NCBI GenBank assembly: GCA_004020545.1
Contig: SAQE01000020.1
Location: 1-64,000, forward strand
Direction of reading: 5' to 3'
Length of the DNA stretch: 64,000 bases
DNA from: Mesorhizobium sp.
Lineage (GTDB): Bacteria > Pseudomonadota > Alphaproteobacteria > Rhizobiales > Rhizobiaceae
Below the pieces are notes generated by a model. That model ran no database searches and was not told the DNA's origin. It saw nothing but the letters and a program-made list of their open reading frames with translations. Every line of letters starts with the position of its first letter. Positions within the stretch are counted from its first letter, which is position 1. Positions 4,030 to 22,656 of the stretch are shown in pieces. The translations under genes and the position numbers were made by a program.

Positions 4030-4045
4030 TTTGCGCGAACGCAAA
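4030..4045. promoter_or_regulatory. NnrR/Dnr-type box, perfect palindrome
   Basis: TTTGCG-CGAA-CGCAAA, perfect 6-4-6 symmetry. If it works at -41.5 like other Crp/Fnr class II sites, transcription would start near 4079, about 170 nt before the small membrane ORF at 4248. Same motif as at 7721, 15801, 18600, 23347, 37182, 38071 and 44268. Confidence 0.7.
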
Positions 4046-4247: not shown

Positions 4248-4388
4248 GTGATTGAGGAGTGGCCAGTTCTCGTTTTCGGCCCTGAGGCAGCAAGGGGCGC
4301 GAAGGCGGATCACGCATTGTTGCCCATGCTCATTGCGGGACTCTGCCTAAGCGCGCTCGGCTGCGTGATGGTGTTGATCTTTGTCTAG
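4248..4388 (+). CDS. 46-residue single-pass membrane peptide
   Basis: GTG start with an AAGGAG site seven bases upstream, reading 46 codons to TAG at 4386. The N-terminal half is polar (begins VIEEWPVLVFGPEAARGAK in codon translation). Residues about 24-46 form one hydrophobic helix (LLPMLIAGLCLSALGCVMVL) ending almost at the terminus. It is the first gene after the NnrR-type box and lies 84 nt before the polytopic membrane protein, so a role as an accessory subunit of that protein is an attractive inference. I do not recognise a family. It is short enough to be missed by normal gene calling. Confidence 0.6.
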   Translation: MIEEWPVLVFGPEAARGAKADHALLPMLIAGLCLSALGCVMVLIFV

Positions 4389-4472
4389 CGACAAAAGTCA
4401 GCGAGGCTCCTTCGGGAAACCGGGGTCCGATAGGTCCGGCGATTGCCCCAATCATTATCAGGTCGACGGTCG

Positions 4473-5834
4473 ATGATGAGCGCCTCAAGTCTCTCTCGTT
4501 GGACGATGGCGTACTTCGCCGCGGCGCTGTTTTTCTTGATCTCGGCGCAGGTATTGATGGCAAGCGGTTACGGTTTCCCGACTGCTTCCATCGAGGCGCC
4601 GGAGACGCTTGTGGTCGTTCACATGGTCACGATCGGCTGGCTTAGCCTGTTGATGTGCGGCGCCCTGTTTCAGTTCGTGCCTGTCCTGGTTGCGCAACCG
4701 TTGCGCGACAGCACCTTGGCTCTGCCGGCGTTGTTGTGCCTCCTTGCCGGGCTGTTATGCCTGCTCGGCGGGTTTCTCCAAACCGCAGGCACGATCGATC
4801 TCGATATTCCGTTTCTGGCCTTCGGCGGTCTGTTCCTTCCCTCGGGTTTCGCGCTGGTCATCTGGACGATCGGCCGCACTTTGTGGAGCGTTCCGAAATC
4901 CGGCCTATCCTTGCCCGCGCGCTTCGTGGCGGTAGGGCTAACCTGCGCGGCGGCTGCTGTCGCGTTGGGCGCATCGTTTGCATGGGTGCTGTCCGGACAC
5001 GCGCCGGCGTTGGCCGGCACCGATGTTCTCGCATTCGGGCTTCCCGTTCACGTGGCAATGGGTTTGGGGGGCTGGCTCGGGTTCACGGCCATCGGCGTCA
5101 GCTATCGCTTGCTGCCGATGTTCATGCTGTCTCCAGATAGAGAACACGGCACGGGCCGTTTCGTCCTATGGGCCGGCGCGTCGGCTTGGGGTTTTGTCCT
5201 TCTTGCGCGACCTTTCGCCGTTGTTTCCGGGTCCGCCGCATTGCCGACCGGTTTCGCCGGCGTCCTCATCCTCGTCGCGACGGTCTTCTTCGCCTTCGAT
5301 CTGATCTTCTTCTATCGCCACCGCCGGCGCGGCAAGATCGAACTGAACGTCAAGTCGGCGATCGGCGCGTTCCTGGTCCTCTATTGTTCGATCTTGCTCA
5401 TTCTTATCCTGGTCGCAGCCGGAACATTCGCCGAGCATGTCGACGCTGTCGTCTACATCGTCGGTTTTGGCTGTCTGACCGGCCTTGGACTATCGATGCT
5501 GTACAAGATCGTCCCGTTCCTGACTTGGCTCGAATGTTATGGGCCGGTGATGGGCAGGGTGCAAACGCCGCGAGTGCAGGACCTCGTCGTTGAAAGCCGC
5601 GACAGGGTTTTCTTCACGCTCTACTATGCCGGCATGCTGCTTGGAACCGGCGCGCTGCTCGTCGGGGCGCCTATCCTGTTCCGTGTCGCAACGGCGATGA
5701 CGCTGCTGGCCACCATGGCGATCGTCGCGGAACTCGTTGTGGCGCGCCGCCTTGTCAATGTCGGCGCCACGCTGCGCCTGCCCGAGGGGGCGTCGCGCCC
5801 GCGACTTTTCCTGCCCCACTGGCACGCCAGGTAG
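4473..5834 (+). CDS. Polytopic membrane protein with conserved-type His residues, NnrS/heme-copper-oxidase-subunit-I-like
   Basis: About 453 residues with roughly twelve hydrophobic segments and almost no soluble domain. His50 lies in a helix context VVHMVTIGW, followed by ALFQFVPVL. A second His sits in PVHVAMGLGGWLG followed by YRLLPMF, and a third helix ends YKIVPFLTWL. These His-in-helix patterns followed by proline-containing turns recall NnrS and quinol/NO-reductase-like heme-copper proteins, but I cannot name the family with confidence. The start is one of the two adjacent ATGs at 4473/4476. It is the core of an operon with a membrane peptide, a double DUF2249 protein and a DUF59 protein under an NnrR-type box, which suggests NO or anaerobic respiration biology. 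Confidence 0.75.
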   Translation: MMSASSLSRWTMAYFAAALFFLISAQVLMASGYGFPTASIEAPETLVVVHMVTIGWLSLLMCGALFQFVPVLVAQPLRDSTLALPALLCLLAGLLCLLGGFLQTAGTIDLDIPFLAFGGLFLPSGFALVIWTIGRTLWSVPKSGLSLPARFVAVGLTCAAAAVALGASFAWVLSGHAPALAGTDVLAFGLPVHVAMGLGGWLGFTAIGVSYRLLPMFMLSPDREHGTGRFVLWAGASAWGFVLLARPFAVVSGSAALPTGFAGVLILVATVFFAFDLIFFYRHRRRGKIELNVKSAIGAFLVLYCSILLILILVAAGTFAEHVDAVVYIVGFGCLTGLGLSMLYKIVPFLTWLECYGPVMGRVQTPRVQDLVVESRDRVFFTLYYAGMLLGTGALLVGAPILFRVATAMTLLATMAIVAELVVARRLVNVGATLRLPEGASRPRLFLPHWHAR

Positions 5835-5851
5835 ATAGGAGTTCAAAAAAA

Positions 5852-6370
5852 ATGAGTGCCCCGCACTGCGACCTCGACGTTCGACCGATACTTCGCGAAG
5901 GTGGAGATCCTTTTGCCGCGATAATGCAAGCCGTGGCCGCGCTCGCGCCCGGTCAAAGGCTCAGATTGCTTGCCCCATTCAAGCCGGTCCCTCTGTTCCA
6001 TGTGCTTGGCGCGCGAGGGTTCTCGCCGTCAGCCCGGGAAATAGGATCCGGTGACTGGGAAGTAATCTTCACCCCGGCAGGGGTGGAGCAGTCGGAAGAA
6101 GCTCCCCTCCCAAGCCATGATGACGACGACTGGCCGGCGCCGGATCTAGAGCTGGACAGTCGCGATCTGGAGCCACCTGAACCGATGGTCAGAGCGCTGC
6201 AGGCGGTCGAAATCCTGGCGCCGGGTCAAACAGTGGCTGTGCTTCTTCCGCGGGAGCCGATATTCCTCTTCGATGAGTTGAGGGCGCGCGGCCACCATTG
6301 GCGGGGTGCGTTCGAACCTGAGGGCCACTATCGCGTTGTCATCCGTTCTGGCGGACGGGAGCGGTCATGA
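5852..6370 (+). CDS. Tandem DUF2249 protein
   Basis: 172 residues carrying two DUF2249 domains (about 7-75 and 95-168). Each has the family pattern Asp-hR-(E/P)-P followed by a helix and an APGQ-L-LL-P-F-P-PLF-L-RG segment, seen as LAPGQRLRLLAPFKPVPLF and LAPGQTVAVLLPREPIFLF. The fold is TusA-like. DUF2249 proteins are frequent in denitrification and NO-related gene clusters, but their biochemistry is not established. AGGAG lies ten bases before the ATG. It overlaps the next gene by 4 bases (ATGA), indicating translational coupling. Confidence 0.85.
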   Translation: MSAPHCDLDVRPILREGGDPFAAIMQAVAALAPGQRLRLLAPFKPVPLFHVLGARGFSPSAREIGSGDWEVIFTPAGVEQSEEAPLPSHDDDDWPAPDLELDSRDLEPPEPMVRALQAVEILAPGQTVAVLLPREPIFLFDELRARGHHWRGAFEPEGHYRVVIRSGGRERS

Positions 6371-6681
6371 CATACGAAGAAGACGAGGCTCTGACATCTG
6401 CCGCGCGTGAATCGTTGCGCTTGGTTATCGACCCGGAACTTGGTGAGAACGTCGTCGATCTCGGACTGATATACCGGCTTTCAGTGAGCCAGGGCGGGAC
6501 AGCCCATATCGAGATGACGACAACGACGCGCGCCTGTCCCGCGGCGGATTTTCTGAAGGACGCCGTACTGTCGGCCGTTTCGCAACTTCCCGAAATCAGG
6601 GACGTGCACGTTCGGCTCACATATGAGCCGCCATGGGTGCCCGACATGATGAATGCGGACGCCAGTCGTCGTCTCGGCTAG
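6367..6681 (+). CDS. DUF59/MIP18 metal-sulfur cluster assembly factor (SufT-like)
   Basis: 104 residues. Residues 13-95 are a DUF59 domain: DPELGENVVDLGLIYRL near the start, then the Cys-containing MTTTTRACPAADFL, where the conserved Cys lies, and a terminal VHVRLTYEPPWVPDMM. This motif set is shared by PaaD, SufT and MIP18, proteins that help place Fe-S clusters. With the tandem DUF2249 gene it may service a metal centre used in denitrification, perhaps one linked to the upstream membrane protein; that link is inference. Its TAG stop (6679-6681) is the first triplet of a RIME-like repeat, so the C-terminal residues after the conserved domain may have been set by the insertion. Confidence 0.85.
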   Translation: MTYEEDEALTSAARESLRLVIDPELGENVVDLGLIYRLSVSQGGTAHIEMTTTTRACPAADFLKDAVLSAVSQLPEIRDVHVRLTYEPPWVPDMMNADASRRLG

Positions 6682-6807
6682 AGCGTTTCAGCGTTTCACG
6701 GAAACGCCGAACCGACCTATCTCTTTGTTTTTACGCAATTCCGGACGGAAGGCTACGGCGAAGTCGCCGAGCCGTACCGTTACACACTTTTCCTGGAATT
6801 GCTCTAA
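6679..6807. repeat. RIME-like palindromic repeat, copy 3 with internal hairpin insertion
   Basis: Two palindromes (TAGAGCGTTTCAGCG ... ; CAATTCCGGACGGAA ... TTCCTGGAATTGCTCTAA) with the usual TTTGTTTTTACG linker. Compared with the copy at 22550 it carries about 25 extra bases after CCGGACGGAA. The insert is itself palindromic (GGCTACGGCGAAGTCGCCGAGCC), so the element is about 129 bp instead of about 107. It lies between the convergent SufT-like gene and nnrR and may act as a bidirectional transcript end. Confidence 0.85.
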
Positions 6808-6816
6808 GCACGCCAA

Positions 6817-7521
6817 TCAGCTTTTTTCAGCGCGCCCTTCAGCCAGTTCAAGCAGGCGGTGGGGCGCGAGGACAGTTACCTTCTGACGCCCGCTTTTGAC
6901 GAGGCCTTTGCCTTCCCAGCACGAGAGCAAGCGGCTGACGGTGTGAAGGGTCGTCCCGGTCATCTCGGCGATATTCTGGCGTGACAGCGGGAAGTCGATG
7001 AGGAATCCTTCCCCGGTCTTCTTCCCCGTCTGGTCGACGAGCTTGAGAAGCGCATGGGCGACGCGCTGATCCACCTGCTCGGTCGACATTTCGATGACAC
7101 GAGAGTGCGCGTCCTGCAGACGGCTGCCGATGGTCTTATACGCGTTGGCGACGAAAGCGGGGAATTCCTCCGCGAATGTTGGCCACTGATGGCTCGGCCA
7201 GGCAAGCGAGACGCAGTCAACGACGGCGATTGCGCTGGCCGGGTAGGTGGTCCGGCCCAGCGCGAGGGCGATGCCCATCAACTCGCCGGGGCTTATGTAA
7301 CGCACAGTCACCTCATGTCCATCCGGGGTCGACTTCACCACGCGCACGTGACCGTCGAGCAGCAGGAAAAAGGAATGGGCTTCCTGCTCCTCCTCGAACA
7401 GAAATGCATTCCTGGCGATCCGCTTCGATCGAGCCCGGCCGATTATCGTATCCAGTTCCTTGGCCGTGAGGTCCTGGAAGGCAGACAACCCGGCAATCAA
7501 TGATCGGTCTAGGCTTGCCAC
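6817..7521 (-). CDS. nnrR: NnrR/Dnr-type Crp/Fnr regulator
   Basis: 234 residues: an N-terminal cyclic-nucleotide-binding-like beta barrel (about 10-125), a long dimer helix, and a C-terminal HTH (about 165-215). The N-terminus lacks the Cys cluster of FNR, as expected for NnrR/DNR proteins that sense NO. The recognition helix reads TGTTLHTVSRLLS, with His in the position where FNR has Glu (ETISR), in line with a TTGCG-type half site instead of TTGAT. It starts at GTG 7521 with AGAGGAAAG in front. The palindrome at 7721-7736 upstream suggests autoregulation. This is the best candidate for the regulator that reads the eight TTTGCG-N4-CGCAAA boxes of the window. Confidence 0.85.
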   Translation of the reverse strand: MASLDRSLIAGLSAFQDLTAKELDTIIGRARSKRIARNAFLFEEEQEAHSFFLLLDGHVRVVKSTPDGHEVTVRYISPGELMGIALALGRTTYPASAIAVVDCVSLAWPSHQWPTFAEEFPAFVANAYKTIGSRLQDAHSRVIEMSTEQVDQRVAHALLKLVDQTGKKTGEGFLIDFPLSRQNIAEMTGTTLHTVSRLLSCWEGKGLVKSGRQKVTVLAPHRLLELAEGRAEKS

Positions 7522-7720: not shown

Positions 7721-7736
7721 TTTGCGCCCCGACAAA
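7721..7736. promoter_or_regulatory. NnrR-type box between nnrR and the DUF2249 gene
   Basis: TTTGCG-CCCC-GACAAA, one mismatch in symmetry. It lies between divergent genes. A class II arrangement would put starts near 7770 (plus, 53 nt before the DUF2249 ATG) and near 7687 (minus, 166 nt before nnrR). Confidence 0.6.
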
Positions 7737-7822: not shown

Positions 7823-8107
7823 ATGAACATGTCTGAATCAGAAGTCATGCCTCAGCCCCAACTGGACGTGCGCGCCATCCCGCCTGTGGAACGCCACGCT
7901 CGTATCTTCGGGATTGCCCGCGCGCTGGACGAAGGCGAATCGTTCGTCATCGTGAACGATCACGATCCGCGACCTTTGCGCTATCAGATGGAAACCAGGT
8001 ATCCGGGTCTGTTCTCCTGGGAATACCTGCAGCAAGGGCCGGAAATCTGGCGCGTGGAGATCAAAAAATTGCAGTCGCCCGGCTGCGATTGTTGCTGCGG
8101 CGGCTGA
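7823..8107 (+). CDS. Single-domain DUF2249 protein with Cys-rich tail
   Basis: 94 residues. Residues 13-82 are one DUF2249 domain (LDVRAIPPVERHARIFGIARALDEGESF, then the DPRPLRYQ and W-R-V segments). The last residues are PGCDCCCGG: four Cys within five positions, which could bind a metal or cluster. Tails of this kind occur on small DUF2249 proteins near denitrification genes, but their role is unknown to me. It is transcribed divergently from nnrR with an NnrR-type box about 95 nt upstream. The ATG at 7823 has only a weak ribosome site; Met3 (7829) is an alternative. Confidence 0.8.
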   Translation: MNMSESEVMPQPQLDVRAIPPVERHARIFGIARALDEGESFVIVNDHDPRPLRYQMETRYPGLFSWEYLQQGPEIWRVEIKKLQSPGCDCCCGG

Positions 8108-12801: not shown

Positions 12802-13701
12802 TCAGGCCGTCGCGGTTACCTGCCAGCCGGGCCTGGCATGAGCGTACCCGTCGACCAGGATGCCAGGCAGATCGAGGCACGAAAGGGCGAAGCGGGCATC
12901 CTTGGGCTCCTCTTTGCCGTCGGCAAGCCGTCTATATATCCTCGCTACCTCCACCATGTCGCATGTCTGGGGGGACAAACGCAGGCGCCTGACGCCCTTG
13001 GCGGCGAGTGCGGCAGGGGCGGGGCAGAAAGCCTGCACCTGATTGGAAAGGGTCTGTACACCGTTGACGGCGAGGAATTGCTGGTCGTCGAGCGTATCGA
13101 CCGAGAGACCATCGGGATCCTTTTCGCAGGTGAACTGGCATGAATCCTTATGAAGGCCGTGGATCCGAGCGTGATAACACCGTCCGGAAAGGGCGAGCGG
13201 CAACCGCCCGAACGCAAAAATCTCGAACTCGGCCTCCGGACATTTCAAGGACATGACGCCGATCGCCGCAAACGACAATTCCACGGGCGGGCATATTGTC
13301 TGAGCGCCGAGCTGGATCAGGAATTTCGCGGAAGCCTCGTTGTAGACGTTCAGGAACGGACCCGTGACGAAGGGTTTGCCGGAACGTGACGGCAGGCCGG
13401 ACACGTCGTTGATCTCGACCAGCCTGTCGTCTGCGCAAAGATCCTCGACGCTTCTGCGTTCCCGCACGGTTGCCGGCGCCGCCAGTGTGGACAGCACCAC
13501 CTGTTTGCCGCCGCGCTCCAGCCGTTCGATGATCGCCGGCCATGCGGGATCCGAAAACGGCATCCGCTTTCCGCAGACGACTTCACCGAGGTGAACGCGC
13601 TCGATCGGGGCCTCGTCCGCTATCCTGCGGTAGAAATCCAGGAGACGGTCGGGGGGCCAGTGGAAGAAGACAGGTCCAAGCGTCAGCGCGATTTCGGACA
13701 C
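12802..13701 (-). CDS. ubiV: UbiV, U32-family Fe-S protein for O2-independent ubiquinone hydroxylation
   Basis: 299 residues, the normal UbiV length. The four Cys of the [4Fe-4S] site are in place: GEVVCGKR near residue 43, then C-X12-C-X3-C in GRCYHARIHGLHKDSCQFTCEKD. With UbiU it forms a heterodimer that hydroxylates ubiquinone intermediates without oxygen; UbiT is the lipid-binding partner (shown in E. coli and Pseudomonas). It lies 3 nt downstream of ubiU in the same operon. It supports quinone supply during denitrification. Confidence 0.93.
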   Translation of the reverse strand: MSEIALTLGPVFFHWPPDRLLDFYRRIADEAPIERVHLGEVVCGKRMPFSDPAWPAIIERLERGGKQVVLSTLAAPATVRERRSVEDLCADDRLVEINDVSGLPSRSGKPFVTGPFLNVYNEASAKFLIQLGAQTICPPVELSFAAIGVMSLKCPEAEFEIFAFGRLPLALSGRCYHARIHGLHKDSCQFTCEKDPDGLSVDTLDDQQFLAVNGVQTLSNQVQAFCPAPAALAAKGVRRLRLSPQTCDMVEVARIYRRLADGKEEPKDARFALSCLDLPGILVDGYAHARPGWQVTATA

Positions 13702-13704
13702 CGG

Positions 13705-14703
13705 CTATCTCCATTTCTTCTCGTAGGCTCCCGCCGTCTGCCGAGCCCCTTCCGACTGGCCGGCGAGAAGCCGGTCGACGTCAATGGCGTCGCCGCCCTT
13801 CTCGACCGCGTCGACGGCTTTTCTGAAGGCGCGCACGACCTCGCTTACGTAGCCTTTGCCGCGCTGGCGCCCTTCGATTTTCAGTGCAGTCACCCCGGCG
13901 GCCTTCAAGCCTGAAATCATGCCGCCGGCGTTCAGGCTGACGGGATCCTCAAACAGATGGGACGTCTTGCCGTCGGCTTTGAATTTGCCCTTGCAGAGAG
14001 TAGGATAACCCACCGGCTGGCCGCGCTCATATCGATCGATCGTGAAGCCCGACAGCCGCGCTGTTGTGCCGCTCGGCTCTTCGTCATAGCTCACCATCTC
14101 AGGTGGCGAGCAGACACCGTTGAGATTCGGCGATTTGCCCGTCGCATATGAAGAGAGATAGCAGCGACCCTCGATCATCACGCAAAGACCGCCGAAAACG
14201 AAGGCTTCGGTTTCGACGTCGATCGCGCGGTTCAGCGCGGTTATCTCCTGAAGTGACAGAACCCTTGGAAGCACGACGCGGCGAATGCCGAACTGAGCCG
14301 CATAGAACCCGATCGCTTCCGGCGTCGCCGCAGCAGCCTGCACCGACAGATGAAGACGGATTTGCTTGTGGTTCCTTGCCACATGATCGAGGACGGCGAA
14401 GTCCGCGGCTATGATGGCATCTGCGCCGCTTTCGGCCGCCGAGTCCGCTGCCTTCTTCCAGGTGTCGACATCGTCGACACGCGCGAAGGTATTGATTGCG
14501 ACCAGAACCTTGCTGCCGTGGTCGTGCGCGAAGCGCACTCCCTCGGCCAGCTCGTCCCGGGAGAAGTTGAGCCCGGGAAAGTTGCGAGCGTTCGTTTCAT
14601 CACGAAATCCGCAATAAACCGCGTCCGCGCCCGCCTGGACGGCTGCCCTCAACGTAGCAGGGGTTCCGGCCGGGCAGACAAGTTCCATGCGCGTCATCGT
14701 CAT
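13705..14703 (-). CDS. ubiU: UbiU, U32-family Fe-S protein for O2-independent ubiquinone hydroxylation
   Basis: 332 residues. N-terminal MELVCPAGTPATLRAAVQAGADAVYCG is the U32 signature. The Fe-S Cys set FGGLCVMIEGRCYLSSY, LNGVCSPP and YPTLCKGKF is present. Partner of UbiV in anaerobic ubiquinone synthesis. The ATG at 14703 overlaps the ubiT stop by 4 bases (GGAAAG upstream), so the pair is translationally coupled. Confidence 0.93.
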   Translation of the reverse strand: MTMTRMELVCPAGTPATLRAAVQAGADAVYCGFRDETNARNFPGLNFSRDELAEGVRFAHDHGSKVLVAINTFARVDDVDTWKKAADSAAESGADAIIAADFAVLDHVARNHKQIRLHLSVQAAAATPEAIGFYAAQFGIRRVVLPRVLSLQEITALNRAIDVETEAFVFGGLCVMIEGRCYLSSYATGKSPNLNGVCSPPEMVSYDEEPSGTTARLSGFTIDRYERGQPVGYPTLCKGKFKADGKTSHLFEDPVSLNAGGMISGLKAAGVTALKIEGRQRGKGYVSEVVRAFRKAVDAVEKGGDAIDVDRLLAGQSEGARQTAGAYEKKWR

Positions 14704-15245
14704 GCTTTCCGCGCCTCGCTGGGGTTATTTTCGGCCAATCGGCGGGCGACGCCCAGGGCGCCAAGGACACCCGTATCGACACAGCGGGCAAGGCTGCCGC
14801 GCAGTCCGAGCAGGTCCGCCGGACGAAGCTCGGCATCCTCTATCGTGTTCCTGAGGGCGAGCACCGCTTCCGTGCGCCCGCTTATCGAGATGATGCGGCT
14901 GAAGAACATCGCATCGCCGTCAAGCGTGCCGTCAAGCAGGCCCAACAGGGTCAAAAGCGGCCCTTTGATCAGCACGTCCGATTGAGCAGCTTCATCCTTG
15001 CTCACGACGCGGACACTGGATCGTTGTCCGTCCGGGACCACGCGGAATGCGAATGCGAGGTCCACGGGATCGATGACGAAGCAGGCCGACCGGTATTCGC
15101 CCAGGCGCTCGAAAAGACCGGGGCGCCGTCCGGCAAGCGCGCGCAAGGACAATGTCAGCAACGGACCGAGCGGCAACCCTGCGACTGTCGGAAACAGGTG
15201 GCGAACAAATCCTGGCAACATTGGCTCGGCGTTTAGCGGCCGCAT
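14700..15245 (-). CDS. ubiT: UbiT, SCP2-domain lipid carrier for anaerobic ubiquinone synthesis
   Basis: About 181 residues with an SCP2 sterol-carrier-like domain (residues about 35-140: DLAFAFRVVPDG ... DVLIKGPLLTLLGLLDGTLDGDAMFFSRIISISGRTEAVLALRN in segments). UbiT binds the isoprenoid quinone precursors that UbiU/UbiV modify. The start is ATG 15245; a TTG two codons earlier (15251) is possible. First of the coupled ubiT-ubiU-ubiV set, 50 nt after the DUF6455 gene. Confidence 0.9.
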   Translation of the reverse strand: MRPLNAEPMLPGFVRHLFPTVAGLPLGPLLTLSLRALAGRRPGLFERLGEYRSACFVIDPVDLAFAFRVVPDGQRSSVRVVSKDEAAQSDVLIKGPLLTLLGLLDGTLDGDAMFFSRIISISGRTEAVLALRNTIEDAELRPADLLGLRGSLARCVDTGVLGALGVARRLAENNPSEARKA

Positions 15246-15295
15246 CTTCAAGCGCTGTCCGTTCTATGTCCGATCATGAAGGTTTATGCGGCCAG

Positions 15296-15718
15296 CTAGG
15301 CGTCGCATTTCTTGCCGAGCAGCTTCGAAAAATTATCTGCGTTGGGGCAGAAATCGCGATAGTGGCTTTCGAAATCGAAGGCCTCCATATGATCGTGACA
15401 TCTGCGGCGATGGGGGCATGCGATGCAGGTTCGGGACATGAAACGGTCACGCGCGAATTCCAGCGTTTGGAAGTCGTCGGGATCGATCCCGACCGAAAGC
15501 ATCGCCAAAGTGAGGAAATCCTCGGCGGCATAAGGCAGATGCATGGCCTCATCGAATTCGCTGGGCGACATGCCGATGTCGTTCAGCATACCCGTGCATT
15601 CCTTCGGACCAAGCGCCCAGAATTCCCGTCTCGCTGCCCTGCTTCGTCCGCGGTCCTTGAAAAAGGAGATTGCCGACCGGCATGTTTCAAGGGTGCCGTT
15701 GATTAGATTATTGGCCAT
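15296..15718 (-). CDS. DUF6455 protein with C-terminal Cys cluster
   Basis: About 140 residues. The last 45 residues carry CIACPHRRRCHDHMEAFDFESHYRDFCPNADNF in pieces: CxxC, a further Cys and FCPNA, the pattern of DUF6455 proteins, and a plausible metal or Fe-S site. I prefer the ATG at 15718 because the shared NnrR-type box predicts a transcript start near 15767, which is downstream of the in-frame ATG at 15778; a GGGAAG lies before 15718. It is the first gene of the operon leading into ubiTUV and mog, so a role in anaerobic quinone or Fe-S metabolism is inferred only. Confidence 0.75.
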   Translation of the reverse strand: MANNLINGTLETCRSAISFFKDRGRSRAARREFWALGPKECTGMLNDIGMSPSEFDEAMHLPYAAEDFLTLAMLSVGIDPDDFQTLEFARDRFMSRTCIACPHRRRCHDHMEAFDFESHYRDFCPNADNFSKLLGKKCDA

Positions 15719-15800
15719 TCTGAACGTCTTCCCGATATCGACCAGCCCCTCAGGCGGGCGGACCACTAAATCAACCATATCGAGCGGAAACGATCCCTTC

Positions 15801-15816
15801 TTTGACCTAGCGCAAA
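15801..15816. promoter_or_regulatory. NnrR-type box in the divergent ubi promoter
   Basis: TTTGAC-CTAG-CGCAAA. At -41.5 spacing it would give starts near 15850 for the ubiD-like gene (leader 13-28 nt) and near 15767 for DUF6455-ubiTUV-mog (leader about 48 nt to the ATG at 15718). Both distances are realistic, so one site may drive both arms. Confidence 0.65.
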
Positions 15817-15864
15817 GTTTTCGGGCGGCCGCCGTGTGAGAAGAATGTCGCCGACGGACCGGTC

Positions 15865-17412
15865 GTGCCGGACTTCGCCATGCATTATCGCCTTCTTCCC
15901 CAGTTCTCCGATCTCGGCTCCTTTCTTTCGCACCTGGAGGTGAAGGGCCAGCTTCAGGAAATCCGCGCCCCGGTCTCGACGCGGTTCGAACTGACGGAGA
16001 TACACAAGAGAACAATCGCGGCGCACGGGCCGGCGCTGCGCATGACCATGCCGATCGACGACCAGGGGACCGGTTCGTCCTTTCCGGTCGTGGCAAACAT
16101 TTTCGGGACGCGCGAGCGCGTCGCATGGGGGCTGGGAACGGACATTCGCGGGCTCGAGACTCTCGGCGCTCTGCTGGCGTGGATGAGGTCCCCTCAAGCT
16201 CCGCAAAACTTGCGTCAGGCCCGCCACATGTTCTCCGCCGCGCGCGGTGCGTTGGCGGCGCGCCCGAAGATCGTTTCGTCGTCAAGACTGAAGATCGTTT
16301 CGTCGTCAAGACTATGGAGGGATGCGGAACCGGATTTCGCAATCCTTCCCATCCAGACCTGCTGGCCGGAGGACGCCGGTCCTCTCATCACATGGCCTGT
16401 GGTCGTCACCCGGCCGCCGGGCGAGGATGATCCCGGCAAATACAATCTGGGCATATACCGGATGCAGGTCATCGCCCGCGACCGGGCGATCATAAGATGG
16501 CTGCCCATGCGAGGCGGCGCGGCCCACCATCGCATGTGGAGGGCGAGGGGGCTCGAGATGCCCGTCGCCGTCGTCATCGGCGCCGATCCCGCGACATTGA
16601 TAGCAGCGGTGATGCCGGCGCCCGAAGGGGTATCGGAACTTTCACTGTCCGGATTGATCAACGATCGACGGGTTGGATTGTCTCCATGCAAGAGCATCGA
16701 GCTCCATGTTCCCGCCAGTTCCGAGATCGTGCTCGAGGGAACCGTCTCACCTGACGAAACCGCAGAGGAAGGTCCCTTCGGTGACCACACCGGATACTAT
16801 AACGGCGTGGAGCATTTTCCCGTCTTCAAGCTCAAGCGCATTCGCGTGAGGGACGGCGCAAACTATCTCACGACTTTCACCGGGCGCGCGCCCGACGAGC
16901 CGTCCGTCCTTGCCGAGGCGCTGCTCGACGTCTTCAAGCCGCTGCTGCGCCAGCAGATACCGGAAATTCTCGACGTCTGGCTTCCGCCGGAAGCCTGTTC
17001 CTACAGGATTGCGGTCATATCGATCGTCAAGAAATATGCCGGACAGGCGCGGCGCGTGATGATGGGGTTCTGGTCGCTGTTGCCGCAGTTCTCGATGACC
17101 AAGATGGTCGTCGTGGTGGACGACGACATCGACATCCGGTCGTGGTCGGACGTGATGTGGGCGGTTGCCACCCGCATGGATTTCTCGCGCGATCTGATGA
17201 AGCTGGATCGGACCCCTATCGACTCCCTCGACTTCGCGTCGCCGCTGGAAGGGCTTGGAGGAAAAGTCGGATTCGACGCCACGCGCAAGATCGGGTCCGA
17301 GACGTCGCGTGAGTGGGGGAAGGAGCTAAGGATGTCGTCTCACATCGTTGAAAGAGTTTCCGAGCGCTGGGATGAGCTTTTTCCTCAGGCAAGCGGTTCG
17401 GTGCAAAAATGA
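15865..17412 (+). CDS. UbiD-family prenyl-FMN decarboxylase
   Basis: 515 residues, usual for UbiD. Family landmarks include the N-terminal FLSHLEVKGQLQEIRAPV, NLGIYRMQVI, a GPFGDHTGYYN motif in the centre (E-X-PFGD-H-TGYY) and VVVDDDIDIRSWSDVMWAVATRMD near the end. The likely role is decarboxylation of 3-polyprenyl-4-hydroxybenzoate in ubiquinone synthesis, given its divergent ubiTUV partners; other UbiD substrates are possible. Translation may start at GTG 15865 or ATG 15880. It overlaps ubiX by 4 bases. An unusual exact 8-residue tandem duplication lies at residues about 135-150. Confidence 0.88.
   Translation: MPDFAMHYRLLPQFSDLGSFLSHLEVKGQLQEIRAPVSTRFELTEIHKRTIAAHGPALRMTMPIDDQGTGSSFPVVANIFGTRERVAWGLGTDIRGLETLGALLAWMRSPQAPQNLRQARHMFSAARGALAARPKIVSSSRLKIVSSSRLWRDAEPDFAILPIQTCWPEDAGPLITWPVVVTRPPGEDDPGKYNLGIYRMQVIARDRAIIRWLPMRGGAAHHRMWRARGLEMPVAVVIGADPATLIAAVMPAPEGVSELSLSGLINDRRVGLSPCKSIELHVPASSEIVLEGTVSPDETAEEGPFGDHTGYYNGVEHFPVFKLKRIRVRDGANYLTTFTGRAPDEPSVLAEALLDVFKPLLRQQIPEILDVWLPPEACSYRIAVISIVKKYAGQARRVMMGFWSLLPQFSMTKMVVVVDDDIDIRSWSDVMWAVATRMDFSRDLMKLDRTPIDSLDFASPLEGLGGKVGFDATRKIGSETSREWGKELRMSSHIVERVSERWDELFPQASGSVQK
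16267..16314 (+). repeat. In-frame 24-bp tandem duplication inside ubiD
   Basis: The 24-bp unit at 16267-16290 is repeated at 16291-16314 with only the last base changed (g to a, synonymous). It encodes KIVSSSRL twice. It keeps frame and looks recent. Confidence 0.9.
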
Positions 17413-18002
17413 CCAAACGGATAATCGTGGGGGTGACCGGCGCGTCAGGCTCGGTGCTGGCCCTTGAGACCATACGCCAACTGGTCAGAGCTGGTGTGGA
17501 AACGCATCTTGTCGTCTCAAAAAGCGCGCGCACGACCATTGCTTACGAGCTTGGCGCCGACGGATTGGCGCAGCTTGCTTCACTCGCCAACCACACCCAC
17601 AACCACCAGGACCTGGCAGCGCCGATCGCCAGCGGCTCGTTCAGAACGGACGGCATGATCGTCGTGCCCTGCTCGATGCGGACCCTTGCGGCGATGGCGC
17701 ACGGCTTGGGCGACAACCTTCTGACCAGAGCGGCCGACGTTGTGCTTAAGGAGAGGCGCCGGCTGGTGGTCGTACCGCGCGAGGCGCCTCTGCACGAAGG
17801 GCATCTGGATGCGATGCTGAGATTGACACGGATTGGAGCGATCATCGCGCCGCCGGTGCCGCCATTCTATGTCAAGCCGGCTTCGATCGAGGCGATGATC
17901 GTCGAGATGGCTGCGCGTCTGATCGGCTGGGTTGGCGTGGACCCTGGCGACAAGCTGACCAGGTGGGGCGAAAAGAACGTCGCGGCCCATCGGTCATTTT
18001 GA
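17409..18002 (+). CDS. ubiX: UbiX-family flavin prenyltransferase
   Basis: 197 residues. IIVGVTGASGSVLALETIRQL binds FMN, VPCSMRTLAAMAHGLGDNLLTRAADVVLKERRRLVVVPRE is the core UbiX signature in pieces, and PLHEGHLDAMLRL follows. It makes prenylated FMN, the cofactor of UbiD-type decarboxylases. Overlap ATGA with the ubiD-like gene means the enzyme and its cofactor maker are co-translated. Confidence 0.92.
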   Translation: MTKRIIVGVTGASGSVLALETIRQLVRAGVETHLVVSKSARTTIAYELGADGLAQLASLANHTHNHQDLAAPIASGSFRTDGMIVVPCSMRTLAAMAHGLGDNLLTRAADVVLKERRRLVVVPREAPLHEGHLDAMLRLTRIGAIIAPPVPPFYVKPASIEAMIVEMAARLIGWVGVDPGDKLTRWGEKNVAAHRSF

Positions 18003-18427: not shown

Positions 18428-18599
18428 CTTTTTCTTCTCCCGTCGCAGTCGGCCCCACCTGGAGCCGTTGCACAGCAGACCTGTGCCCTGGATGATCCGG
18501 CCGGGAAAAAACGAGACGCATCCCCTGCCGGGAACCAGATCGTTTGGACCAGGCTGCTTCAAGAACAATCTTCAAGATAGGCGATGCTTCTGAAGGATG

Positions 18600-18615
18600 T
18601 TTGCGCTGGAGCAAA
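18600..18615. promoter_or_regulatory. NnrR-type box upstream of nnrS
   Basis: TTTGCG-CTGG-AGCAAA, flanked by G and C that extend the palindrome. The predicted transcript start near 18649 lies 71 nt before the nnrS ATG at 18720. Confidence 0.7.
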
Positions 18616-18719
18616 CACCGGATCGATCCTCGAACCTATTGCGCCATACCTGCCTTTCCTTGCCCGTCCATCTAATGGCAGGCGACGCAGGGAGCGGCAT
18701 TGTCATTCCAGAGGGTCGC

Positions 18720-19883
18720 ATGGGCGCTGACGGCAATTTCAAGGTCTTCAAGACAAAGCCGGTGCATCTGCCGTTTCGACCGTTCTTTCTCGTGGCTGCG
18801 GCCGACGCCATCCTGGGCGCGGGCGGCTGGTTGCCGTCGGCGTTGGGAATACAAGTCTTCGGCCCGACAGGAATCTCTGCCGGCGATTGGCATCGCGACA
18901 TGCTTCTGTTCGGAATGGTTCCGGCAGTATTGACCGGCTTCCTGCTGACAGCGCTGCCCCGCTGGACAGGGCATCGCGTGGCGTCGCCGCACACGACGCA
19001 TCTGCTCATTCTCCTGTGGGCATGCAGCCGTGCCGCCTTCCTGCTGCTATCGCCGTCGTTCGGGCTAACGTTCTCGGCGATCTGGGTTCTCGCGCTGTTG
19101 TCGATCGCGGCCAGGGTGGTGATCGCCAGTCGGGATCGCCGCAATTTGAAGATACTGCTTCTGCTGGCCGCTTTTTGCGGCAGCAACGGACTCGTCGCGG
19201 CATCGTACCAGGTGGAATTTGCGCTCAGGCTGGCGCTCGTTTCGATCATCGGTCTCGTCGTCACCATCGGAGGGCGGGTCGTGCCGGCCTTGACCGTAGC
19301 CTATGTCGAGAGCGCTGGCGGTCAAATCGTGCTGCGCCGCTCCGCATCCAGGGAGTACGCGGCGGCGCTGATGACCATTTCCGCGCTCTGTTCATGGGCT
19401 GTTGCGCCGGAGGCGCAACTCAGCGGACTTGCCTGTGCTCTCGCCGCCATCAGCCAGGCGATCCGGGCCGCCCAATGGAAAGGCTGGCGAAGCCTGTCAT
19501 CTTCGACGGTGCTTGGCTTGCATATCGGTTACGGATGGATCGCCGTGGGTTTTGCATTCCTGGCGATCCATATCTTTGCGCCAGCGATGCTGGGCCAGGC
19601 GACCGCTCTTCACGCCTGGACCATCGGCGCCATCGGAACCATGGCCCTGGCCATCATGGCCAGCATGATCCGCAAGCACAGCCGTCTCGCCTTCGTGCCC
19701 TCGACGCCCGCGACCGGGGCGCTCGCGGCAATGACGGCCTGCTGCCTGTCGCGCCTGCTGATCGAAGTGTTGCCCGGCTACGCCGGCCCGCTGGCAAGCT
19801 TTTCAGGCGCGTTGTGGATTGTCGCGTTTGGTCTGTTTCTGACGGCCTATCGCGGGACGCTCCTCGGAGCGGGCTTGAAATAG
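18720..19883 (+). CDS. nnrS: NnrS family membrane protein
   Basis: About 387 residues with twelve predicted membrane helices. NnrS hallmarks are FRPFFLVAA near the N-terminus, DWHRDMLLFGMVPAVLTGFLLTALPRWTG, GGRVVPALT and ALHAWTIGAIGTMALAIMASMI. NnrS is a heme- and copper-containing membrane protein linked to NO and iron stress during denitrification. I chose the ATG at 18720 with AGAGGGT upstream; the ATG at 18675 is an in-frame alternative. It ends 1 nt from the convergent ftrD gene. Confidence 0.92.
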   Translation: MGADGNFKVFKTKPVHLPFRPFFLVAAADAILGAGGWLPSALGIQVFGPTGISAGDWHRDMLLFGMVPAVLTGFLLTALPRWTGHRVASPHTTHLLILLWACSRAAFLLLSPSFGLTFSAIWVLALLSIAARVVIASRDRRNLKILLLLAAFCGSNGLVAASYQVEFALRLALVSIIGLVVTIGGRVVPALTVAYVESAGGQIVLRRSASREYAAALMTISALCSWAVAPEAQLSGLACALAAISQAIRAAQWKGWRSLSSSTVLGLHIGYGWIAVGFAFLAIHIFAPAMLGQATALHAWTIGAIGTMALAIMASMIRKHSRLAFVPSTPATGALAAMTACCLSRLLIEVLPGYAGPLASFSGALWIVAFGLFLTAYRGTLLGAGLK

Positions 19884-19884
19884 C

Positions 19885-21300
19885 CTACCAGATCCAGAAA
19901 AGCAGGACCCACCCCGCCACGGCGGGTGTCATCGCCAGCCCGACAAGGGATAGGGCGAGCACCCGCCGGGCGGGTTGCTGGCTGTAAGTTCCCGTCATCT
20001 GCCAGCACAGAACCCCGGACCAAAAGGTTGCCATCGCCAGGGTCGCGAGGCGCAGCAGATCCACGAACGGCAGCACGATCCCATCCGAACGCAACTGACT
20101 GACCGTAAGGCCGGAAAGACCCAGGAAGACCCCGGCGCCCGCCAAGGGGATCAGCGACTGGGCAAGATGATGAAATCTCTGCGTCCGCCAGGGACCAAGG
20201 CTGCGCGCGGCCAAAGCCAGCAAGGAAAGCGTCGTCGCGCCGCAGGCGAGGGCCGCCGCGAGCAGATAGGCGATGAGCAGTGCTCCGTCGAGAAGCGTCA
20301 TCACATCGTTTTTTTGAGGATAGTTCGTCAGTACCCACCAGGGCGCCGTCGCTTCGAGCGGCCAGGTTGCTCCGTTTTCGATCAGCCACTCGGCCATCCA
20401 TTGCTTCGCGTAGACGAACCAGGGGCTGACCGACCATTGAAATGCTCCGACGGCGAGGCCCATGAGGCCAAAGACGATCAGGATCGTTTCCCAGGGCTTG
20501 GCGGCGCCGGCGACATGGACAATCTCGTGATTTGGCGAGCGGCGAGCCAGACGAATTGCTCCGCGAAAACCGCTGCAGCGCCCGCACATGTGGCAGTCGC
20601 TGGCGCCGCGCATGGTCCGGATCGGCACGAGCGGCGCGCAATTAATCGCCTTTGGCTTGGTTCCCGAGAGTTGCGAAAGTTGCCAGAGAGGCGGATCGAC
20701 ACGGAAATGCAGCGGGGCCAATTTCGCCAGCAGGCCAAAAACCCCGCTCACCGGGCAGAGATAGCGGCACCACACACGCTTGTTGCGCCCATAGAGCAAA
20801 CCGATCAGGGCGGCCGCCAAGGTCGAGCCACCGAGGATGAGGAGCGTCGGAGCGGGATACTGATAAACGCTCGTCATTTGGCCGTATAGCGTCGTGCAGG
20901 CGAATGCGAGGGTGGGCCAACCGGGCCACATCAGCCAGCGCGGTATCGCCCTGCCACGCCCGCGGCCGCTGGCGAACTCGGTTATCGCTCCTTCCGGGCA
21001 GAGGATGCCGCACCATATCCGCCCGACCAGCGCGGTTGTCAGAAGCACGAGCGGCCACCAGACGCCCCAGAAGATGAATTGGGCGAACCGCGTGAAGTTG
21101 GTCCAAAGATAAACCGCACGGTCCGGGAGCGGCAGGAAAACGGGCACGATCAGCAGAACGCAGTACACAAGCACCATCGTCCACTGCACGATCCGGATCG
21201 TTGCCTGATGGCGTTGGAGCCAATCGCCGATCTTCAGCCAGACATCGTCGGGCTGAATGGAAGGAGCGTGTCGCGGGACGATCGTTATCGTCATGGACAT
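19885..21300 (-). CDS. ftrD: FtrD-like polyferredoxin membrane protein
   Basis: About 471 residues with multiple membrane helices and three Cys clusters: WCGILCPEGAI, WCRYLCPVSGVFG and CHMCGRCSGFRGA, like the NapH/CcoG polyferredoxins. In the FtrABCD iron system of Brucella and Bordetella, FtrD is thought to take the electrons released as ferrous iron is oxidised for transport. It starts at ATG 21300 or 21294, overlapping the ftrC stop. Last gene of ftrABCD, convergent with nnrS. Confidence 0.88.
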   Translation of the reverse strand: MSMTITIVPRHAPSIQPDDVWLKIGDWLQRHQATIRIVQWTMVLVYCVLLIVPVFLPLPDRAVYLWTNFTRFAQFIFWGVWWPLVLLTTALVGRIWCGILCPEGAITEFASGRGRGRAIPRWLMWPGWPTLAFACTTLYGQMTSVYQYPAPTLLILGGSTLAAALIGLLYGRNKRVWCRYLCPVSGVFGLLAKLAPLHFRVDPPLWQLSQLSGTKPKAINCAPLVPIRTMRGASDCHMCGRCSGFRGAIRLARRSPNHEIVHVAGAAKPWETILIVFGLMGLAVGAFQWSVSPWFVYAKQWMAEWLIENGATWPLEATAPWWVLTNYPQKNDVMTLLDGALLIAYLLAAALACGATTLSLLALAARSLGPWRTQRFHHLAQSLIPLAGAGVFLGLSGLTVSQLRSDGIVLPFVDLLRLATLAMATFWSGVLCWQMTGTYSQQPARRVLALSLVGLAMTPAVAGWVLLFWIW

Positions 21301-22139
21301 GCTTGCGTGCGATGCGGGCGCGGTGAACGCAGCAGCGCAAGCACGGCTATCCAGTAGATTGCGTAGGCCAGGATGGTTGCGAGCTCGGGACGCGCACGAT
21401 AGCCCGTCATGTTCGCAACCAGGCCTCCCAGCCCGCCTGTATCGTCCAGAAGCCAGGACGTATCCCAAATCGCCCCGGATAGCGGTGGGACCAGCTCCAA
21501 CCCGATGGCGCGGTCCAGCGCGGTCATCAACAGCGATCCCGCCAGAAACAACAGAAGAACCTCGCCCACCCGGAAGAATACGGTCCAGGGAAAGCGTTTG
21601 GCGGCAACGTGGATCAGCCAATAGGATGCTGCGGCGGTGGCAAATCCCGCGGCGACGGCCGCCAACGTTGCGGGAAGTGTTGTTTGCCTGGCGGATGCCA
21701 GGACGCCGTAGAGGAAAACGACGGTTTCGTTGCCTTCCCGCATCACGGCGATTGCCGCCAACAGGAACAGTCCCACCCAATTGCCGGCGGTCACGGCTCG
21801 CTCGGCGCCGCGTTCGAGTTCCGGCTTGAGCCCTCTGCCTTGCCGGTGCATCCAGACCACCATCTGCAATATGAGCAAGGCGGCGAGCGCGGCCATGCCG
21901 ATCTGAAAATAGTCCGCGCGCTCGCCGTCGAGCAGGGTCTCCAGGAACAAGATCGCCCCGGCCAGCAGAAGGGCTCCGCCCAGTCCCGCGGCGACGCCGG
22001 CCCACAGGAAACGTCGCGCCGTGGCGACTTTGGCGCCGGCGTGGTGCGCCAGCCATCCTTGCAGGATACCGACCACCAGAATTGCTTCCGTGCTTTCCCG
22101 CCAAACCACGAAGGCGACTTGTCCGAACAGGGCAGTCAT
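21291..22139 (-). CDS. ftrC: FtrC, FTR1-family iron permease
   Basis: 282 residues with seven hydrophobic segments. Both REXXE iron-binding motifs are present: WRESTEAILV near residue 12 and MREGNETVV near residue 130. The ATG at 22139 lies on the ATGA overlap with the end of the (frameshifted) ftrB frame, the normal arrangement of the operon. It should carry iron across the inner membrane, with FtrA and FtrB as periplasmic partners. Confidence 0.92.
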   Translation of the reverse strand: MTALFGQVAFVVWRESTEAILVVGILQGWLAHHAGAKVATARRFLWAGVAAGLGGALLLAGAILFLETLLDGERADYFQIGMAALAALLILQMVVWMHRQGRGLKPELERGAERAVTAGNWVGLFLLAAIAVMREGNETVVFLYGVLASARQTTLPATLAAVAAGFATAAASYWLIHVAAKRFPWTVFFRVGEVLLLFLAGSLLMTALDRAIGLELVPPLSGAIWDTSWLLDDTGGLGGLVANMTGYRARPELATILAYAIYWIAVLALLRSPRPHRTQACP

Positions 22140-22491
22140 CGAGCCGCCGGCTCCTTGGCGACAAGCGTGGCAGGCGCCATGCCGGGATGAAAATCGTCGA
22201 AGAAGCGGTACTCGCCGGGATCGAGGCGTCGGATCACGACAAACGAACTCGCCCCAGGCCCAGCACTTTCTCCTTGCGCAACTCGATGCTTTCGAATTCC
22301 GCAGGGCCGGACCCGCTGTTGCGAAGCTCCAATCTGAACTGGGAGTTGGCCGGCACTTCGAGGGATTGCGGCGTGACCACCCCATCCTTGAGGTCGACGA
22401 CGAAGGTGGGACTTTCGTCCGCGACCGCGACGGTCGCCAGCATGCAGGCTCCCACAACAATCGCCGCCAGACCGATAGAAGCGCTGTCCAT
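22136..22491 (-). pseudogene. ftrB: FtrB cupredoxin, frameshifted
   Basis: Starts at ATG 22491 with AAAGGAAAA upstream and a signal peptide ending AVAVADE. The cupredoxin-like frame runs to RKEKVLG and then hits a stop after 85 residues. Adding one base in the C run at 22260-22262 restores GPGASSFVVIRRLDPGEY and the FtrB hallmark FFDDFHP, ending with TGA exactly on the ftrC ATG (ATGA overlap). So the gene carries a one-base deletion or a sequencing error. In intact systems FtrB is the copper protein that oxidises ferrous iron for transport. Confidence 0.85.
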
Positions 22492-22549
22492 CGCTTTTCC
22501 TTTGCGTTTCGAGCCGACACGAGACGAGGAATCGCGAAACCGGTCCTCG

Positions 22550-22656
22550 CTAGAGCGTTTCGGCGTTTCACAGAAACGCCGAAACGCTCTAACTATTTGT
22601 TTTTAAGGCAATTCCGGACGGAAAACCGCGTCACACTTTTCCAGGAATCGCTCTAG
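22550..22656. repeat. RIME-like palindromic repeat, copy 4 (full length)
   Basis: 107 bp with two palindromes: CTAGAGCGTTTCGGCG/CGCCGAAACGCTCTAA and a CAATTCCGGACGG ... CCAGGAATCGCTCTAG arm. This is the best-preserved copy here and matches RIME1 in length. It sits inside the ftr operon between ftrB and ftrA, and its right edge supplies the TAG stop of ftrA (22653-22655). Confidence 0.9.

What the first reader, a model, noticed from the sequence alone, without database searches (positions are those of the whole stretch)
4248..6681. Uncharacterised NO/anaerobiosis operon: small membrane peptide, His-rich polytopic protein, double DUF2249, DUF59
Four genes are packed behind a perfect NnrR-type box. 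The polytopic protein has NnrS/heme-copper-like His-in-helix patterns. The DUF2249 pair and the SufT-like protein suggest metal or sulfur chemistry. The 46-aa membrane peptide has a good GTG start and ribosome site. Together they look like a membrane metalloprotein with its accessory peptide and maturation factors, which I cannot match to a described system.
Basis: inference. Interest (0 to 1): 0.8.

Follow-up and report, generated by a model that had tools for sequence, protein, structure and literature searches.

The report
Oxidase-fold heme protein with iron-sulfur partners
A denitrifying soil bacterium carries a small gene set for a membrane protein built like a respiratory oxidase but without its catalytic metal sites, paired with small proteins of the iron-sulfur and sulfur-carrier type, which probably helps protect or repair iron proteins when the cell makes nitric oxide.

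Summary
The operon is real. A perfect NnrR-type box (4030-4045) precedes four packed genes: a 46-aa one-helix peptide, a 453-aa polytopic protein, a tandem DUF2249 and a DUF59/MIP18-type protein. The polytopic protein matches no Pfam or NCBIfam model. A confident AlphaFold model (pLDDT 91.5) has 12 helices; the 50 listed PDB matches are heme-copper oxidases, NO reductases or supercomplexes containing one. It is not a catalytic oxidase: the TM7 His pair and TM10 HxH are absent, and only H50 (TM2) and H193 (TM6) are invariant, 41 of 41 aligned members down to about 25% identity. Counted from each helix's anchor proline they sit at the two positions of the oxidase TM10 HxH, but on repeat units 1 and 2. 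By pseudo-threefold symmetry both would face the third pore, which holds no heme in oxidases. NnrS keeps a different His pattern. The tandem DUF2249 gene accompanies it in 56 of 58 loci, DUF59 in 48, the peptide in few. I read it as an NO-induced membrane b-heme protein serving iron/Fe-S protection or maturation with DUF2249 and DUF59 (function inferred). The fold class is known; I found no description of this gene set, and the predicted heme site looks new.

The parts
4030..4045 (+). NnrR-type box TTTGCGCGAACGCAAA
   Evidence: 0 mismatches to TTTGCGN4CGCAAA; 5 boxes with up to 1 mismatch in window vs 0.27 expected; consensus from PMC1274295 (passage)
4248..4388 (+). 46-aa peptide with one predicted membrane helix (GTG start)
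   Evidence: hydropathy and homologues before the polytopic gene in L002, L005, L071, weaker in L021 and L023; annotated as hypothetical protein in L071
4473..5834 (+). 453-aa 12-helix heme-copper-oxidase-fold protein without the catalytic ligands; invariant H50 and H193
   Evidence: no Pfam/NCBIfam match at E 1; AF2 pLDDT 91.5; Foldseek PDB E 1.2e-6 to a cbb3 oxidase chain; His conservation 41 of 41
5852..6370 (+). tandem DUF2249 (TusA-like) protein without the TusA cysteine
   Evidence: PF10006 two stretches, PF01206 E 3e-9; no Cys or His conserved in 85% of 65 rows; weak match to solved TusA, E 0.032
6367..6681 (+). DUF59/MIP18-type (FeS_assembly_P) protein with invariant C57
   Evidence: PF01883 E 1.2e-17; TIGR02945 E 1.4e-23 but below its cut-off; C57 in 55 of 55; PDB relative 2cu6 E 4.1e-19
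6817..7521 (-). Crp/Fnr-family regulator, usual neighbour
   Evidence: PF00027 and PF13545; cluster found in 50 of 59 loci
7721..7736 (+). weaker NnrR-like box (2 mismatches) before the single DUF2249 gene
   Evidence: one of 13 sites at this tolerance in the window, so it may be chance
7823..8107 (+). single DUF2249 protein with R24-H25 and D46-H47-D48-P49 motifs; probable further partner
   Evidence: PF10006 E 3.1e-30; motif conservation in 35 rows; a homologue lies in 33 of 58 related loci, often directly before the polytopic gene

Best explanation
The operon encodes a membrane module predicted to be induced by NO through NnrR. Its core is a degenerate heme-copper-oxidase homologue with the 12-helix, three-unit fold but without the binuclear centre; it can probably hold one heme, ligated by H50 (TM2) and H193 (TM6). 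Sequence register and pseudo-threefold symmetry place that heme in the pore between units 1 and 2, which is empty in oxidases and NO reductases. Its conserved cytoplasmic face works with the tandem DUF2249 protein and the DUF59/MIP18 protein (and the single DUF2249 protein at 7823), most likely passing electrons or an NO-bound signal from the membrane heme to cytoplasmic iron handling, so that iron-sulfur and heme centres of the denitrification enzymes are protected, repaired or matured while NO is made. Shown by calls: operon, box, predicted fold, His pattern, gene-set conservation. Inferred: induction, heme binding, heme place, complex formation, function.
For: Fold: AF2 pLDDT 91.5, pTM 0.92, 12 helices; 215 PDB matches, 25 at E 0.001 or better; the 50 listed are entries of heme-copper oxidases, NO reductases or supercomplexes with one, best E 1.2e-6, TM 0.66. 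Repeats: unit 1 vs 2 E 5e-11, 2 vs 3 E 2e-6, 1 vs 3 E 4e-6; unit 1 vs CcoN unit 3 E 7e-7 over 52 columns, ungapped through the His-to-Pro stretch; against single sequences 8.3e-7, while the best of 44 control segments reached 2.6e-3. A distant member (L168) weakly hits COX1 PF00115 (E 0.0029, under cut-off) with its unit 1 on profile positions 310-397 of 436, consistent with that register. His: H50 and H193 in 41 of 41; 20 and 22 residues before the anchor in 41 of 41, the offsets of the TM10 His in CcoN and NorB. Topology: 14 K/R in cytoplasmic loops, 0 in periplasmic loops. Gene set: tandem DUF2249 in 56 of 58 loci, DUF59 in 48 of 58; DUF2249 match within 1 kb in 23 of 41 distant genomes, 19 of these over the Pfam cut-off; DUF2249 fused to hemerythrin in 3 of 5 neighbours tested, hemerythrin alone in 2. 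Denitrification: NirK over cut-off in 12 of 15 carriers vs 5 of 20 non-carriers, p 0.002; cNorB 7 of 15 vs 1 of 20, p 0.011; within the same order and without the window's genome 8 of 9 and 5 of 9 vs the same non-carriers, p 0.003 and 0.005. In print (passages of PMC6282519): NarG made without DrpA and DrpB has about a tenth of the wild-type activity, which fits a maturation role of DUF2249 proteins.
Against: Nothing here shows heme binding, a complex, or any effect on iron centres. The model's coordinates could not be inspected, so the H50-H193 distance is unmeasured. Sequence similarity to CcoN stands out clearly for unit 1 only; unit 2 (8.6e-4) is about six times better than its best control (5.4e-3) and unit 3 (5.8e-3) is worse than its best control (2.8e-3). 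The TM2 ligand of NorB sits at -21, between the two offsets, and the TM6 His of NorB has no anchor proline, so the symmetry rule rests on few points. No DUF59 hit was found in 10 of 58 loci, seven of them Mesorhizobium or other Hyphomicrobiales loci that run well past the gene (L003, L004, L007, L010, L014, L016, L018), and in three more it lies kilobases away. The tandem DUF2249 protein has no conserved Cys or His, so it carries neither sulfur by a TusA cysteine nor metal by such ligands. 8 of 15 carriers lack a cNorB hit and 3 of 15 lack NirK over cut-off. 18 of 41 distant genomes show no adjacent DUF2249 match, and several distant members are not in an evident denitrification cluster.
Confidence: 0.42

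Rival explanations
1. A sensor/regulatory module, as proposed for DrpA/DrpB: the membrane protein binds NO or a nitrogen oxide and the DUF2249 proteins relay the signal to a Crp/Fnr regulator.
For: Crp/Fnr gene cluster in 50 of 59 loci; DrpA is a single and DrpB a DUF1858 plus double DUF2249 protein, and loss of both makes nar expression nitrate-independent (passages of PMC6282519); a DUF1858 gene cluster is present in 16 of 59 loci (domain confirmed on the L007 member).
Against: No DNA-binding or kinase domain was found in the four operon proteins; a DUF59 partner has no evident role in such a relay; Crp/Fnr genes are usual in denitrification loci (recalled); the DrpAB model is tentative by its authors' own words.
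Confidence: 0.22
2. A maturation factor for one denitrification enzyme, NO reductase being the first candidate (assembly of its heme/FeB centre).
For: COG4309 (I take this to be DUF2249, recalled) is probably co-transcribed with nor genes in three rhizobia and was proposed to matter for NO reductase (passage of PMC1274295); in L070 and L072 the set lies near genes that read as norCBQD, and in L165 between hemerythrin/DUF2249 and genes that read as norB-norQ-norD.
Against: 8 of 15 carriers have no cNorB match at E 1e-40 (a quinol NO reductase could be missed); in this window the nor genes lie about 31 kb away; the distance correlation with NorB is weak (0.37) against 0.86 with the DUF2249 pair.
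Confidence: 0.17
3. A transporter or channel (nitrite, NO, sulfur or metal species) that merely reuses the oxidase fold.
For: Invariant or nearly invariant polar residues in the membrane near the cytoplasmic side: Q67 in 41 of 41, K345 as K or R in 41 of 41; no redox centre shown.
Against: Two strictly invariant His in the heme-ligand third of TM2 and TM6 are hard to explain without a bound cofactor; no match to a transporter family beyond isolated weak hits.
Confidence: 0.1
4. An ordinary divergent NnrS protein.
For: Same superfamily by publication (recalled), same neighbourhood (NnrS cluster in 28 of 59 loci); a weak local profile match of unit 1 to the last third of NnrS, E 1.8e-4.
Against: No NnrS match at E 1 while the NnrS at 18597-19883 scores 225.6 bits; NnrS conserves H57, H59, H304 and H326 (numbering of L073, 27-29 of 29 rows), the protein here H50 and H193 on units 1 and 2.
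Confidence: 0.03

Closest known systems
cbb3 oxidase subunit I (CcoN) and NO reductase NorB, heme-copper oxidase superfamily
   Same: predicted 12-helix three-unit fold; unit 1 aligns with CcoN unit 3, H50 on the second His of the TM10 HxH
   Different: no TM7 HH, no TM10 HxH, so no CuB/FeB, no high-spin heme and no canonical low-spin pair; no PF00115 match for the window protein
NnrS (PF05940)
   Same: denitrification neighbourhood, multi-helix membrane protein, few conserved His
   Different: different His pattern (H57/H59, H304, H326 of L073 against H50 and H193 here) and no profile match
HCOH families (heme-copper oxidase homologues, Pei et al. 2014)
   Same: recalled from the abstract: three-unit members with 12 helices, mostly two conserved His and perhaps one heme, linked to denitrification; a DUF2249 association is cited to this paper in PMC11218638 (passage)
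   Different: the paper is not held, so I could not see whether this family is one of theirs or which His it lists
DrpA/DrpB of Thermus thermophilus
   Same: single and double DUF2249 proteins tied to nitrate respiration (passages)
   Different: no oxidase-fold membrane partner is mentioned in the passages I saw; DrpB carries DUF1858 in the same chain
SufT/MIP18/PaaD-type DUF59 proteins
   Same: PF01883 with the invariant Cys
   Different: below the NCBIfam cut-offs of SUF_assoc, SufT and PaaD; I did not search for suf or paa genes nearby

Membership tests
Heme-copper oxidase superfamily, by fold | 12 transmembrane helices in three four-helix units matching subunit I | tested here: met
   predicted model and fold search; repeats
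Heme-copper oxidase / NO reductase, catalytic subunit | six His: one on TM2, one on TM6, HH on TM7, HxH on TM10 (recalled) | tested here: not met
   only the TM2 and TM6 His are invariant
Heme-copper oxidase / NO reductase, catalytic subunit | PF00115 or NCBIfam profile match over cut-off | tested here: not met
   none for the window protein; weak hits only: PF00115 E 0.0029 for L168, 1 of 5 distant members tested, and PRK14485 (cbb3 subunit I/II) best E 0.0013 in 4 of 42
NnrS | PF05940 match over cut-off | tested here: not met
   no match at E 1; the own-genome search with the family finds two other genes
NnrS | conserved His columns H57, H59, H304, H326 of L073 | tested here: not met
   29 NnrS sequences of 31 fetched (two short ones dropped); the weak match of unit 1 to the last third of NnrS does put H50 on H304
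HCOH (three-unit) | 12 helices, two conserved His, no binuclear centre (definition recalled) | tested here: met
   the source paper could not be read
HCOH (three-unit) | binds one heme | not testable with these tools
   needs purified protein
DUF2249 (tandem) | PF10006 over cut-off | tested here: met
   116.9 bits vs 29.5, two stretches
TusA sulfur carriers | CPxP cysteine (motif recalled) | tested here: not met
   no conserved Cys in 65 rows
SufT / SUF_assoc / PaaD equivalogs | NCBIfam score over cut-off | tested here: not met
   83.1 bits vs 143.4, 72.1 vs 202.6, 45.2 vs 108.15
NnrR regulon | box in the promoter region | tested here: met
NnrR regulon | binding by NnrR and induction | not testable with these tools
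   needs a reporter or expression data

The most novel reading that the evidence does not exclude
A heme-copper-oxidase-fold protein that has moved its only heme into the third pore (between units 1 and 2), which is empty in oxidases and NO reductases, and that has turned from a catalyst into an NO-induced transmembrane redox or NO-handling partner of DUF2249 and DUF59 proteins: a membrane-anchored iron-centre repair system of denitrifiers.
Probability: 0.27. Interest if true: 0.78.

Novelty: new variant of a known kind. Interest (0 to 1): 0.55.

Why it matters
How denitrifiers keep Fe-S and heme enzymes working while they make NO is open, and DUF2249 (as COG4309) has been NO-linked without a function since at least 2005 (PMC1274295). 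This family ties DUF2249 to a specific membrane protein over a range of about 25 to 71% identity, gives it a fold, names two residues to mutate, and makes one sharp structural prediction (heme in the third pore) that can be checked on the existing model in minutes and on protein with a spectrum.

Tried and rejected
NnrS membership: rejected by profile and His pattern. Catalytic oxidase or NO reductase: rejected by missing ligands. Known transporter: no match at E 1 for the window protein; of 42 members isolated weak hits only. Sequence search of PDB with the protein gave lactate oxidase over 29 residues (best E 0.0019), which I take as chance, and with the alignment none at E 10; only the fold search was informative. 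Whole-length profile comparison with CcoN, NorB and NnrS gave only weak local hits, so I compared the three units separately and added controls; the controls are 44 segments of eight other window reading frames, mostly but not all membrane segments. S. meliloti locus tags that I recalled: no paper holds two of the six. DUF2249 with Bradyrhizobium: none. A possible natural fusion in L044 was dropped: the polytopic reading frame runs out of frame through the DUF2249 gene, more likely a frame error. 'His-rich' dropped: 8 His in 453.

What is in print, as far as searched: DUF2249 alone finds 2 papers in the held library, DUF2249 with heme-copper 1 of these, with denitrification both. One search lists 9 papers holding two of six related terms; I looked at passages of two of them (PMC1274295, PMC6710368) and at listings of the rest, so I cannot say that none mentions this protein. 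Most subscription papers are not held, and Pei et al. 2014 could not be read. All papers cited were seen as passages only; PMC9409073, PMC10790758 and PMC4602095 were looked at and hardly used.
Full report
Pfam gives the third gene two DUF2249 stretches, the second half also resembling TusA, and the fourth the FeS_assembly_P (DUF59) domain; the first two genes match nothing at E 1 in Pfam or NCBIfam. Upstream lies TTTGCGCGAACGCAAA at 4030-4045. The published NnrR consensus is ctTTGcgnnnncgCAAag (PMC1274295, passage). The window holds five such boxes with up to one mismatch, against 0.27 expected. The others lie at 18600, 23347, 37182 and 38071: at the start of the NnrS frame, before the Fe2+ transport gene, and before and within the group of nor-like genes.

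The window is a denitrification island: reading frames for respiratory nitrate reductase, a norB-like gene at 38686 with neighbours that read as norE, norQ and norD, hemN, NnrS at 18597, and an oxygen-independent ubiquinone set (names other than Pfam hits are my reading). No other genome of the same genus among the 398 searched had a match, at least 8 being examined, so the gene is patchy.

Relatives: 58 loci were found in named genomes. The tandem DUF2249 gene is present in 56 of 58, in one (L059) on the other strand; the two misses, L042 and L058, are cut off inside the polytopic gene. A DUF59 hit is present in 48 of 58, in three of them (L019, L021, L023) kilobases away; a single-DUF2249 gene in 33 of 58. 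In 59 loci longer than 9 kb, clusters of reading frames were: tandem DUF2249 in 58, polytopic 57, Crp/Fnr 50, DUF59 48, single DUF2249 29, NnrS 28, and others that read as pseudoazurin 26, NirK 25, NorC 20 and NorB 19, and DUF1858 16 (clusters of antisense frames are left out here). Tblastn found the protein in 114 of 72,556 plasmid records, 71 with at least 80% of the query in one place, mostly Sinorhizobium and Rhizobium. Sinorhizobium meliloti pSymA carries the set between hemN and an NnrS-nirK block (my reading; the record has no annotation). In 'Roseateles sp. XES5' (marked unverified organism) the annotated order is cytochrome c, cbb3-type subunit I, CbbQ/NirQ/NorQ, NorD (which read as norCBQD), hemN, DUF2249, hypothetical protein, DUF2249, metal-sulfur cluster assembly factor, NnrS, nirK. 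Pairwise distances of the polytopic protein follow those of the DUF2249 pair (r 0.86), Crp/Fnr (0.84), single DUF2249 (0.83) and DUF59 (0.75) more closely than NnrS (0.49) or NorB (0.37); relatedness of the species is not removed from these numbers.

A profile of 42 rows (A1) found the protein in 49 of 398 genomes of the phylum: 13 close and 36 distant, the distant ones about 25-30% identical by BLAST where printed. A search with the single sequence found 11 of 385 genomes of the class, 4 close and 7 weak. In 23 of 41 distant genomes tested a DUF2249 match lies within 1 kb, 19 of these over the Pfam cut-off; 18 of 41 show none there. Of 5 neighbours tested, 3 are DUF2249 fused to hemerythrin and 2 showed hemerythrin only. 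So the link to DUF2249 is older than the alphaproteobacterial operon, and iron-binding partners recur; several of these distant loci show no evident denitrification genes.

Fold: AlphaFold on A1 gave pLDDT 91.5 and 12 helices. Foldseek against PDB gave 215 matches, 25 at E 0.001 or better; the 50 listed are entries of heme-copper oxidases, NO reductases or supercomplexes that hold one, the best being cbb3 (E 1.2e-6, TM 0.66); that the matched chains are subunit I is my reading. With the oxidase topology (N-terminus inside, assumed) the loops hold 14 K/R inside and 0 outside.

Ligands: in 41 aligned members (11 close, 8 intermediate, 22 distant) H50 and H193 are invariant, as in all 42 rows of A1, where the canonical HH on TM7 and HxH on TM10 are absent. 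A classical binuclear centre is therefore excluded and one heme is the most that looks likely. The three units are clear repeats. Each central helix ends at an anchor proline (P70, P215, P348). From it H50 is 20 and H193 is 22 residues back in 41 of 41 (at the second anchor 34 of 41 have Pro, 7 another residue). In one CcoN and one NorB sequence the TM10 HxH lies at 22 and 20 back, and the TM6 His of CcoN at 20. From established oxidase structures (recalled), the -22 His of TM10 serves the pore shared with unit 2, the -20 His the pore shared with unit 1, and the TM6 His faces unit 3. So -20 looks to the next unit and -22 to the previous one. Applied here, H50 (unit 1, -20) and H193 (unit 2, -22) face each other in the pore between units 1 and 2. 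NnrS has His at -22 and -20 on unit 1 and H304, which a weak profile match puts on H50, in its last third, plus H326; by the same rule H57 and H304 would share the classical low-spin pore. The weak points: NorB's TM2 ligand is at -21, NorB's TM6 His has no anchor, unit 2 aligns with CcoN only slightly better than controls and unit 3 no better, and I could not see coordinates.

Function: close carriers more often have NirK over cut-off (12 of 15 vs 5 of 20) and cNorB (7 of 15 vs 1 of 20) than non-carriers of the same order. Five of the 15 are from other orders or classes; within the same order and without the window's own genome it is 8 of 9 and 5 of 9. In print, COG4309 was proposed to matter for NO reductase (PMC1274295), all four DUF2249 genes of Haloferax mediterranei rise in denitrification (PMC11218638), DrpA/DrpB shape nitrate respiration in Thermus, with about a tenth of the nitrate reductase activity in the double mutant despite NarG being made (PMC6282519), and in Bradyrhizobium a DUF1858 gene and hemN2 are NnrR-dependent (PMC6710368). 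For all of these I saw passages only. I take protection, repair or maturation of iron centres as the most likely role, with sensing and NO-reductase maturation as rivals.

The small peptide: BLAST finds it in L002, L005 and L071, before the polytopic gene. A profile of these four finds two weaker matches (L021, L023; E about 1e-7) near another DUF2249-DUF59 pair and a marginal one in L045 (E 0.015). Between window and L002, 16 codons differ silently and 16 with a residue change, so the frame looks coding but fast-changing. It may be a small subunit, as other oxidases have (inference), but it is not core.

Noticed in passing
window 12802-18002: Two U32 peptidase-family genes, an SCP2-type gene, UbiD and a UbiX-type flavoprotein lie together in the denitrification island (Pfam), which reads as an oxygen-independent ubiquinone set (UbiU/V/T recalled); a two-mismatch NnrR-like box lies at 15801.
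   Followed up: partly
window 19885-23264, box 23347-23362: An iron uptake group (Fe2+ transport protein PF10634; FTR1-like and NosR-like reading frames by my reading) lies beside a perfect NnrR-type box, suggesting iron uptake under NO/anaerobic control.
   Followed up: partly
L159, L160, L168: Distant relatives are divergently paired with a DUF2249-hemerythrin fusion and not in an evident denitrification cluster; in L165 the protein lies between hemerythrin/DUF2249 and genes that read as norB, norQ and norD.
   Followed up: partly
L021 11448-12638, L023 11534-12676: A second single-DUF2249 plus DUF59 pair followed by a homologue of the 46-aa peptide, away from the polytopic gene.
   Followed up: partly
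window 6728-6750 and 22601-22623: A repeated intergenic stretch (TTTTTACGCAATTCCGGACGGAA, 0 and 2 mismatches); a TTG-N8-CAA match beside it (6725-6738) can mimic a regulator site.
   Followed up: partly
window 25564-28302: A 912-aa reading frame with two MFS-like halves directly before the nitrate reductase genes, reading as a fused NarK pair.
   Followed up: no
distant members, position of E354: The distant clade has a third conserved His (20 of 22) where the close clade has Glu on the cytoplasmic half of TM10; a possible second metal site in that clade.
   Followed up: no
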